A DNA stretch of 32,517 nucleotides. Source: Microcaldota archaeon (lineage in GTDB: Archaea > Micrarchaeota > Micrarchaeia > CABMEP01). The translations under genes were made by a program, and so were the position numbers. Each line of letters opens with the position of its first letter. The first letter of the stretch is position 1. Under the pieces are notes generated by a model that was not told the DNA's origin, ran no database searches, and saw only the letters and a list, made by a program, of their open reading frames with translations. The stretch spans positions 1 to 32,517 of the forward strand of contig JAOAKO010000008.1 in NCBI GenBank assembly GCA_026413625.1, written 5' to 3'. This document shows positions 507 to 1,876 of this stretch, piece by piece.

Positions 507-1715
507 TTATTCAAAATGACTTAGGAATATATAGAACGGAAGCTTCATTGGGTCAGTGTTGATTATTTGGAATCCATCATATACAATATACTTTCTTTTA
601 TTTGCAAACTCTTTAAACTGCTCTATTCCTTTGCTTGGGCCACCGATCTCAAAAATTGTATCTCTCCATATGTAATCTGGTCCTGTTTTTAGATAAAATA
701 AATCATCAATATGCATAGCAAACATATCCTCTCTTGTCAACCCAACAATTCTTTCTTTTTCCCCTAGGATTTCAAGTATTGTCTGCCTTATTACTGGAGA
801 GGTAAACAAGTATTTTGGTTCCTTTCTAACCTTCCCCTTTCCACTGGAATAAGGATAAATTGACTTTATCACATTAGCTTTGATCAAATAATCTATCATT
901 TTAATAACAGTTCCCTTTCCCACACCAAGGTCACGAGAGATGGTTTCGTAACTGGTTCTATCTGAAAGTGCTAACAGATTTATTAAGGGTTTATACTTTT
1001 CAAGAATTGAGGAAGAGAAGGCAGCTGTTCCGCCTATGTCTTCATAGATTATTCTTTCCATTACGTCCAACAATGTTGATCTTGATCCCTCTATCAAATA
1101 AGGTAGATTCATTGTTTTATATTCATTTACCGCCCTTTCAATATCGCCTATTCTTTCCCTAGCGCTCATTTCTGTTTTCAGTGCTGCAGTTAATGGATCT
1201 TCGGAAAACGGATCAAAACGTTCAATTTCTTTTTGGTATCTCAATTTTAAAAATTCATTAAATGTCAAAGGTTTAAGATTTATAAACTCAGCTCTTCTTG
1301 CAAGGACTCTACGGGCCTCCTGCAAACCCACAGCTGAAGATCCTGTAATAACTATTTTTATTTTAGGATGCATATCAGACAATACTTTTAGTTCTTCTGC
1401 CCAATTCTTTAATTTTGTAATCTCATCTATAAATAGATATCCTTCGCTGAGTAAAAACTTAAGGACTGGTACTATATCTTTAATTGTAAATCCTGCCAGG
1501 CTTAAATGTTCACCATGGATAGCTAAAGCTTTATCTGATTCAAAATATTTTTGTGCTATAAGTGTAGTTTTTCCTGTACCCCTTAGACCATAAATTATTG
1601 TAATATCTGATCTTCCAATTTTATTGTATACATTTCTCTTAAGTGGGAATCGTTTTTCCGAAAGCATCTCTTCCATAAGGAATTTTTCTTCTTTTAAGAA
1701 ACTCAAAATATCCAT
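507..1715 (-). CDS. AAA ATPase, AAA_14/DUF4143 type, with winged-helix-like region
   Basis: This is a 402-residue P-loop ATPase of the large archaeal AAA_14/DUF4143 group. Walker A is GLRGTGKTT at about residues 43-51, Walker B is LFIDEI at 94-99, and a sensor-like ITGSS follows near 122. The middle (about 250-310) contains TSYETISRDLGVGKGT followed by a basic segment, which looks like a winged helix. The C-terminal part fits the DUF4143 nuclease-like domain typical of these proteins. Cellular role is not established for the group; members are abundant and variable in archaea and may be selfish or stress-related. ATG 1715 is supported by a TATA-like element (minus strand GTTAAAAAC, about 1737-1745) some 25 bases upstream, suggesting a leaderless message. 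An unusual dyad array lies directly above that element (see 1747-1876). The HTH raises the possibility of autoregulation; this is inference. Confidence 0.8.
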   Translation of the reverse strand: MDILSFLKEEKFLMEEMLSEKRFPLKRNVYNKIGRSDITIIYGLRGTGKTTLIAQKYFESDKALAIHGEHLSLAGFTIKDIVPVLKFLLSEGYLFIDEITKLKNWAEELKVLSDMHPKIKIVITGSSAVGLQEARRVLARRAEFINLKPLTFNEFLKLRYQKEIERFDPFSEDPLTAALKTEMSARERIGDIERAVNEYKTMNLPYLIEGSRSTLLDVMERIIYEDIGGTAAFSSSILEKYKPLINLLALSDRTSYETISRDLGVGKGTVIKMIDYLIKANVIKSIYPYSSGKGKVRKEPKYLFTSPVIRQTILEILGEKERIVGLTREDMFAMHIDDLFYLKTGPDYIWRDTIFEIGGPSKGIEQFKEFANKRKYIVYDGFQIINTDPMKLPFYIFLSHFE

Positions 1716-1735: not shown

Positions 1736-1745
1736 GTTTTTAACT
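1736..1745 (-). promoter_or_regulatory. TATA-like promoter element of the AAA ATPase gene
   Basis: The minus strand reads GTTAAAAAC about 25 bases before ATG 1715, the spacing seen for most first genes of operons in this window. The dyad array begins immediately upstream, so a bound protein would touch the BRE/TATA region. Confidence 0.5.
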
Positions 1746-1746
1746 C

Positions 1747-1876
1747 TTTTGGTTGACCAAAAATAGGCAACTTTGGTCAACTAATTGACCAAAATAAAGA
1801 ATAATATTACAAATTTTCTATTTATAGTCAACATATTGACCAAAAATCATAATATTTGGTCAATGAATAGACCGAT
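1747..1876. promoter_or_regulatory. Operator-like array of TTGACCAAA / TTTGGTCAA half-sites
   Basis: Five exact 9-base half-sites occur in about 110 bases: TTGACCAAA at 1753-1761, 1785-1793 and 1836-1844, and its complement TTTGGTCAA at 1772-1780 and 1855-1863. They build dyads of the form TTTGGTCAA-N4-TTGACCAAA: perfect at 1772-1793, one arm degenerate at 1823-1844 (7 of 9) and at 1855-1876 (6 of 9). A further short palindrome with arms TTTTGGT and ACCAAAA around TG lies at 1747-1762. Read the other way, TTGACCAAA-N10-TTTGGTCAA occurs twice with identical spacing (1753-1780 and 1836-1863). Such repeated symmetric sites beside a promoter are typical for binding of a dimeric regulator. The only adjacent start is the AAA ATPase; the gene on the other side ends here. 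Confidence 0.75.

What the first reader, a model, noticed from the sequence alone, without database searches (positions are those of the whole stretch)
1747..1876. Repeated TTGACCAAA dyads at the promoter of an AAA ATPase gene
Five exact copies of a 9-base half-site form three TTTGGTCAA-N4-TTGACCAAA dyads (one perfect) and two identically spaced N10 pairs within 130 bases. Five exact copies of a 9-mer in so short a stretch cannot be chance. The array abuts the TATA-like element of one gene only, a AAA_14/DUF4143 ATPase that itself has a winged-helix-like region. This looks like a dedicated operator, possibly autoregulatory, for a family whose regulation is little known.
Basis: partly seen in the sequence, partly recalled or inferred. 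Interest (0 to 1): 0.75.

Follow-up and report, generated by a model that had tools for sequence, protein, structure and literature searches.

The report
Private operator repeats of mobile ATPase gene
The repeated TTGACCAAA sites are a real control element belonging to one archaeal ATPase gene; relatives of this gene carry the same layout (paired mirror-image sites exactly 32 bases apart beside the promoter), but each lineage has its own sequence, and the gene plus its sites behaves like a one-gene mobile unit that is often bordered by the same repeat at both ends.

Summary
In detail: five exact TTGACCAAA copies lie at 1753-1863, with only three others in the 484-kb draft genome. They form four dyads (9-N4-9) in two pairs, each pair exactly 32 bp centre to centre, ending at the TATA box of a 402-aa AAA_14/winged-helix/PD-(D/E)XK-like ATPase (PADLOC PDC-S01). 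In Micrarchaeota, 46 of 74 relatives have 32 bp as the best upstream repeat lag (not among the listed top lags of 124 control promoters), yet the sequence differs by clade. Similar pairs (32-35 bp) occur in methanogens, Diapherotrites and CPR bacteria. Operator similarity tracks the winged-helix and adjacent helical region of the protein, not the AAA or C-terminal parts, and good copies elsewhere in the genomes are absent or nearly so: a private, probably autorepressive operator. Unexpectedly, the unit moves. Close relatives at unrelated loci are alike only from the operator edge to the stop codon; relatives show an empty site for one member; and about a quarter to a third of Micrarchaeota members have the operator repeated directly at the stop codon (0 of 311 ordinary genes). 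The window's gene lacks that right-hand repeat. Self-binding, repression and self-mobilisation are inferred, not shown.

The parts
1855..1876 (-). dyad A, ATCGGTCTA-TTCA-TTGACCAAA (15/18 to consensus), upstream member of the distal pair
1823..1844 (-). dyad B, TTTGGTCAA-TATG-TTGACTATA (16/18), 32 bp from dyad A; followed by a second TATA-like TATAAATA
1772..1793 (-). dyad C, perfect TTTGGTCAA-TTAG-TTGACCAAA (18/18), 51 bp from dyad B
1740..1761 (-). dyad D, TTTGGTCAA-CCAA-AAGAGTTAA (13/18), 32 bp from dyad C; its weak half runs into the BRE/TATA region
1737..1744 (-). TATA-like box GTTAAAAA, starting 29 bp before the ATG (probable leaderless start)
   Evidence: sequence; TATA scan; most relatives have TATA at -28 to -31
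507..1715 (-). ATPase gene, 402 aa: AAA_14 domain, winged helix, DUF4143/PD-(D/E)XK-like C-terminus; PADLOC PDC-S01
804..995 (-). winged-helix segment, residues 241-304; recognition helix 267-279, wing strands 283-288 and 301-304; predicted binder of the dyads
   Evidence: AlphaFold2 model, mean pLDDT 93.7

Best explanation
The array is the private operator of the ATPase gene it precedes. The ATPase's own winged helix binds each dyad as a dimer; two dyads 32 bp apart (three helical turns, same face) are bound together, and the promoter-proximal one covers the BRE/TATA, so the protein represses its own transcription. Operator and gene form one unit that travels together: the operator is the left edge of a single-gene mobile unit, and in many relatives the same 45-73 bp repeat also forms the right edge at the stop codon. 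Shown by sequence: the dyads, the 32-bp rule, clade-specific sequences, near-exclusive occurrence at the own gene in the genomes checked, unit borders, right-hand repeats, one empty/filled site. Inferred: binding by the own winged helix, cooperativity, sign of regulation (repression), and that the protein (ATPase plus nuclease-like domain) acts on the repeats to move or maintain the unit.
For: Repeats upstream: 42/74 relatives vs 10/124 control promoters at p<=0.05, Mann-Whitney 2.5e-17. Lag: mean best 20-mer match 14.4/20 at 32 bp vs about 9 at other lags and 8.6 in controls; 46/74 have 32 as top lag; lag 31-36 significant at p<=0.01 in 46/74 Micrarchaeota, 24/36 Methanobacteriota, 14/34 CPR, 12/34 Diapherotrites, 3/124 controls. 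Private sites: GTWACAAAAATGTWAC copies with 0-1 mismatch in 12 genomes lie at the own gene except for isolated ones in G418:C17 and G161:C84, mostly paired 32 bp apart; the TTGTTC operator occurs 4 times in a 97%-complete genome, all at its own promoter. Operator similarity over 90 genes regresses on residues 241-305 (beta 0.30) and 161-240 (0.29), less on AAA (0.09) and not on the C-terminus (-0.10); label permutation 0/500 for the first two. Unit borders: close pairs at unrelated loci are alike from -98/-79 to the stop codon only; 164 close pairs show DNA similarity only at about -75 to -25 upstream. Right repeat: 20/80 Micrarchaeota genes at E<=1e-8 (most of these operator repeats, a few host-sequence repeats), 27/80 into or after the ORF end; 2/313 control ORFs, both proving to be AAA ATPases. 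In one clade the right repeat encodes the protein tail VQKTDQK-stop or a variant. Empty site: G146 has pyrophosphatase-ATPase-radical SAM, G124 and G143 have pyrophosphatase-radical SAM.
Against: No binding or expression data. The winged helix of STAND-like ATPases can be purely structural, and the region next to it (161-240) covaries with the operator as strongly. The window's own gene has no right-hand repeat and no syntenic relative to show its empty site. The empty/filled pair involves a member (L021) without a detected right-hand repeat, and loss in two genomes rather than gain in one is not excluded. Many members lack a right repeat. The exact 32-bp rule holds for Micrarchaeota; other phyla have 32-35 bp and in CPR and Diapherotrites under half are significant. 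No transposase- or integrase-like domain was found.
Confidence: 0.62

Rival explanations
1. The dyads are an operator bound by a separate host regulator (an Lrp- or MarR-like protein) that silences incoming ATPase genes; the ATPase does not bind them.
For: Dyads at BRE/TATA are typical targets of archaeal regulators; an AsnC-type regulator gene lies beside one member (L288:3999-4550).
Against: Operator sequence differs between clades and between paralogues of one genome, and follows the ATPase phylogeny across phyla; no conserved neighbouring regulator in 20 loci; few or no good copies at other genes.
Confidence: 0.14
2. The repeats are primarily the recognition ends of a new type of single-gene mobile element, whose ATPase/nuclease protein excises and inserts the unit; promoter control is secondary, as in insertion sequences whose promoter overlaps the left end.
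For: Unit borders at the repeats, right-hand direct repeats up to 100% identical over 58 bp, repeat built into the ORF end in one clade, empty site, absence of conserved neighbours, catalytic-type residues D347 and E356 invariant.
Against: No short target duplication outside the repeats was seen at the one member examined (L033, read from the sequences); no transposition in action; most members lack the right repeat; solo repeats left by excision were not found in the genomes searched, apart from two isolated weak copies.
Confidence: 0.3
3. The repeats are iterons of a minimal replicon: the ATPase is an Orc1/Cdc6-like initiator that binds its own origin and promoter, and integrated copies carry the origin at both ends.
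For: AAA plus winged helix; an Orc-like ATPase (L102:10821-11939) has the same flanking repeats.
Against: No episomal form seen; the family is AAA_14 rather than Orc; repeats are only two to four dyads at the TATA box.
Confidence: 0.08
4. Chance or low-complexity AT-rich sequence.
For: The genome is AT-rich.
Against: Shuffle tests and control promoters.
Confidence: 0.01

Closest known systems
PDC-S01 (PADLOC candidate solitary anti-phage gene; AAA_14/DUF4143 proteins)
   Same: The window protein and relatives match PDC-S01 models (E down to 2e-31 among five tested, 3e-26 for the window); the family is abundant in archaea and moved between domains (PMC12988326).
   Different: [quoted passage not shown] defence activity was not tested here.
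arCOG03166, AAA+ ATPase fused to HTH and RecB nuclease domains
   Same: Same stated domain order; listed in archaeal dark-matter islands as likely defence or plasmid gene (PMC4158269).
   Different: Membership of the window protein in this arCOG not tested; no repeats reported in the passages read.
Autorepressed archaeal promoters with dyads at BRE/TATA (Lrp-type regulators and others)
   Same: Dyads abut or overlap BRE/TATA of the gene itself.
   Different: Regulator would be an AAA ATPase; exact 32-bp pair rule; sequence private to each clade; same repeat after the stop codon.
Insertion sequences with promoter in the left end
   Same: Small mobile unit, one gene, promoter beside the left terminal repeat.
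   Different: Terminal repeats are direct (each internally symmetric), 45-73 bp and lineage-specific; no known transposase domain; no short target duplication seen in the member examined.
Integron gene cassettes
   Same: One ORF with a recombination-like repeat starting at the stop codon.
   Different: No integrase or attC noted; the repeat is also the upstream operator; each lineage has its own repeat.

Membership tests
AAA_14/DUF4143 ATPase | PF13173 AAA_14 domain | tested here: met
   E=1.4e-23, 83.8 bits vs cut-off 27
AAA_14/DUF4143 ATPase | PF13635 DUF4143 above gathering score | tested here: not met
   20.4 bits vs cut-off 28.1; C-terminal region conserved in the family but below threshold
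AAA_14/DUF4143 ATPase | PD-(D/E)XK-type acidic residues | tested here: met
   D347 and E356 invariant in 35 proteins, K362 in at least 90%; activity untested
PDC-S01 | match to PADLOC PDC-S01 model | tested here: met
   E=3.1e-26, residues 25-315
PDC-S01 | anti-phage activity | not testable with these tools
   -
Autoregulatory operator | dyad sites at own core promoter | tested here: met
Autoregulatory operator | specific binding by own product | not testable with these tools
   indirect only: covariation with residues 161-305
Mobile unit | same unit at unrelated loci with sharp borders | tested here: met
   (relatives; not the window gene itself)
Mobile unit | empty and filled site | tested here: met
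   one case, L021 in G146 vs G124/G143; gain vs loss not formally polarised
Insertion sequence | terminal inverted repeats and short target duplication | tested here: inconclusive
   terminal direct repeats in 27/80 Micrarchaeota members; outer short duplication looked for only at L033, none seen; absent in the window gene
Insertion sequence | known transposase domain | tested here: not met
   Pfam, NCBIfam and PHROGs show only AAA, DUF4143, HTH-type and replication-ATPase-like hits
Integron cassette | integrase gene and attC site | not tested
   no integrase noted among the few neighbours scanned, but not searched for systematically

The most novel reading that the evidence does not exclude
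A new class of single-gene mobile element in archaea: an AAA ATPase with winged helix and nuclease-like domain whose lineage-specific, 32-bp-period two-dyad repeat serves at once as promoter operator and as both termini recognised for mobilisation, making this abundant candidate defence gene primarily a selfish element.
Probability: 0.3. Interest if true: 0.92.

Novelty: new variant of a known kind. Interest (0 to 1): 0.76.

Why it matters
AAA_14/DUF4143 genes (PDC-S01) are reported as the fourth most common defence system across prokaryotes, with validation pending for most such candidates (PMC12988326). A rigid operator layout with clade-specific sequence predicts which protein binds which DNA, so self-binding, autorepression and specificity changes become directly testable with short oligonucleotides. 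If the repeats are also element ends, these genes would be autonomous mobile units, and their assignment as defence genes from genomic context would need rethinking. The set is also a natural collection of matched winged-helix/operator pairs.

Tried and rejected
Chance: rejected by shuffles and control promoters. Motif scattered through the genome: rejected. Empty site for L033 in its genus: failed, the neighbouring gene is not conserved. Empty site for the window gene: no ortholog of the neighbouring CoA-binding gene in genus or family, only 32-35% matches. First genome-contig scan and the viral scan found no relatives; an alignment of 35 members was too diverse for pattern search. Operator-type right repeats in other phyla: not found; repeats there are outside the operator or low-complexity. 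tRNA 3' ends as insertion targets: seen by eye beside L050, ARAGORN found no tRNA there, left open. Per-residue covariation: winged-helix columns are 10 of the top 30 (65 of 402 residues), suggestive but individual correlations weak. PDB sequence search gave nothing relevant; fold search best hit is P. abyssi ATPase 2qen. Literature: one paper in the library holds the word DUF4143 (paper not read); no paper on regulation of this family was found.

Full report
OBSERVATION. Five exact TTGACCAAA copies are at the stated positions. Sixty shuffles never gave more than three copies of any comparable 9-mer in such a span, and the rest of the 484-kb draft genome holds three. In gene orientation the array is four dyads of form TTTGGTCAA-N4-TTGACCAAA at 1876-1855, 1844-1823, 1793-1772 and 1761-1740 (15, 16, 18 and 13 of 18 positions). 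Centres are 32, 51 and 32 bp apart: two pairs of dyads, each pair three helical turns apart. The last dyad runs into the TATA-like GTTAAAAA 29 bp before the ATG.

THE GENE. The 402-aa product has an AAA_14 domain, matches PADLOC PDC-S01, and is modelled with mean pLDDT 93.7 including a winged helix at 241-304. The C-terminal D347 and E356 are invariant in 35 relatives. The host belongs to the phylum of Micrarchaeota MAGs that hold its relatives.

RELATIVES. 47 of 295 Micrarchaeota genomes hold relatives at E<=1e-20. The closest, L010 (60% identical, another family), has the same dyads in the same register; others have different dyads in the same layout: TTGTTC..GAACAA, GTTACAAAAATGTAAC, TTTCCGAAAAATCGGAAA, TTGTCCAGAAAAATGGACAA and more. 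Statistics: repeats in 42/74 relatives vs 10/124 control promoters; the direct-repeat lag is 32 bp as best lag in 46/74, with 33 in 7 more. In Methanobacteriota the lag is 34-35 bp and dyads often flank the TATA box; in CPR bacteria 33-34 bp, overlapping bacterial promoter-like boxes; in Diapherotrites 32-34 bp.

WHO BINDS. Copies with 0-1 mismatch lie almost only at the own gene, operator classes follow the protein tree, and across 90 genes operator similarity depends on the winged helix and the adjacent helical region rather than on the AAA or C-terminal parts. This favours the gene's own product as the binder. Covering BRE/TATA favours repression. Both steps are inferred.

THE UNIT MOVES. 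Loci of 20 members share almost no neighbours. Near-identical members at unrelated loci are alike from the operator edge to the stop codon and no further (L036/L050, L028/L038, L054/L055, L035/L071); averaged over 164 close pairs, upstream similarity exists only at about -75 to -25. Comparing G146 with G124 and G143 shows the ATPase with its operator lying between two genes that are adjacent in the other two. Diapherotrites members nest within Micrarchaeota clades.

DIRECT REPEATS. In 20/80 Micrarchaeota members a direct repeat at E<=1e-8 joins upstream and downstream flanks (29/80 at 1e-4; 27/80 when the ORF end is included); most are the operator itself, starting at or within about 20 bp of the stop codon. 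Among 313 ordinary ORFs two had such repeats, and both turned out to be AAA ATPases (an AAA_14/DUF4143 protein and an Orc-like winged-helix ATPase), leaving 0/311. In a clade including L020, L056, L070 and L075 the right repeat is part of the coding sequence and encodes the tail VQKTDQK or a variant, so it is integral there. A few members instead show 50-70 bp duplications of the 3' end of the neighbouring gene (L037, L019, L196). The window gene shows neither.

INTERPRETATION. The array is best read as a private autoregulatory operator that forms the left edge of a mobile single-gene unit. Whether the protein itself mobilises the unit through the repeats, or the repeats reflect another route of insertion, remains open. 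The two closest framings in the literature held are PDC-S01 (PMC12988326) and arCOG03166 (PMC4158269); neither, in the passages read, describes this operator or the terminal repeats.

LIMITS. Only one genome per species was available; the window genome is 54% complete; start codons were chosen partly by TATA position; the covariation test is correlative; some relatives' contig ends limit the downstream sequence; the promoter statistics used 124 control promoters from 20 regions.

Noticed in passing
window 1818-1826: A second TATA-like TATAAATA follows dyad B, so the distal dyad pair may mark a second promoter or a remnant of an earlier repeat copy.
   Followed up: no
L102:10821-11939 (G040): An Orc/Cdc6-like ATPase with winged helix has a 55-bp direct repeat (CAATTTTCACCTCTTTCAC...) upstream and at its stop codon, the same layout in a different ATPase family.
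   Followed up: partly
L090:725-1993 (G005): A canonical AAA_14/DUF4143 ATPase has a 64-bp direct repeat (GTAAAACT..AGTTTTAC) upstream and at its stop codon.
   Followed up: partly
L037, L019, L196 flanks: The last 15-17 codons or so of the upstream host gene are duplicated on the far side of the ATPase (51-70 bp, 91-94% identity), suggesting insertion at gene 3' ends.
   Followed up: partly
L050 upstream (about -100 from the ATG): A tRNA 3'-end-like sequence (GCGAGTTCAAATCTCGCCCCCGCCA) directly precedes the operator; L036 and L034 share part of it. ARAGORN called no tRNA there.
   Followed up: partly
L207, L208, L216, L224 upstream: In Methanobacteriota relatives the TATA box sits between two dyads 34-35 bp apart, a different geometry that would also fit repression.
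   Followed up: partly
L056, L070, L075, L020: The ATPase C-terminal tail VQKTDQK and variants are encoded by the terminal repeat itself.
   Followed up: yes
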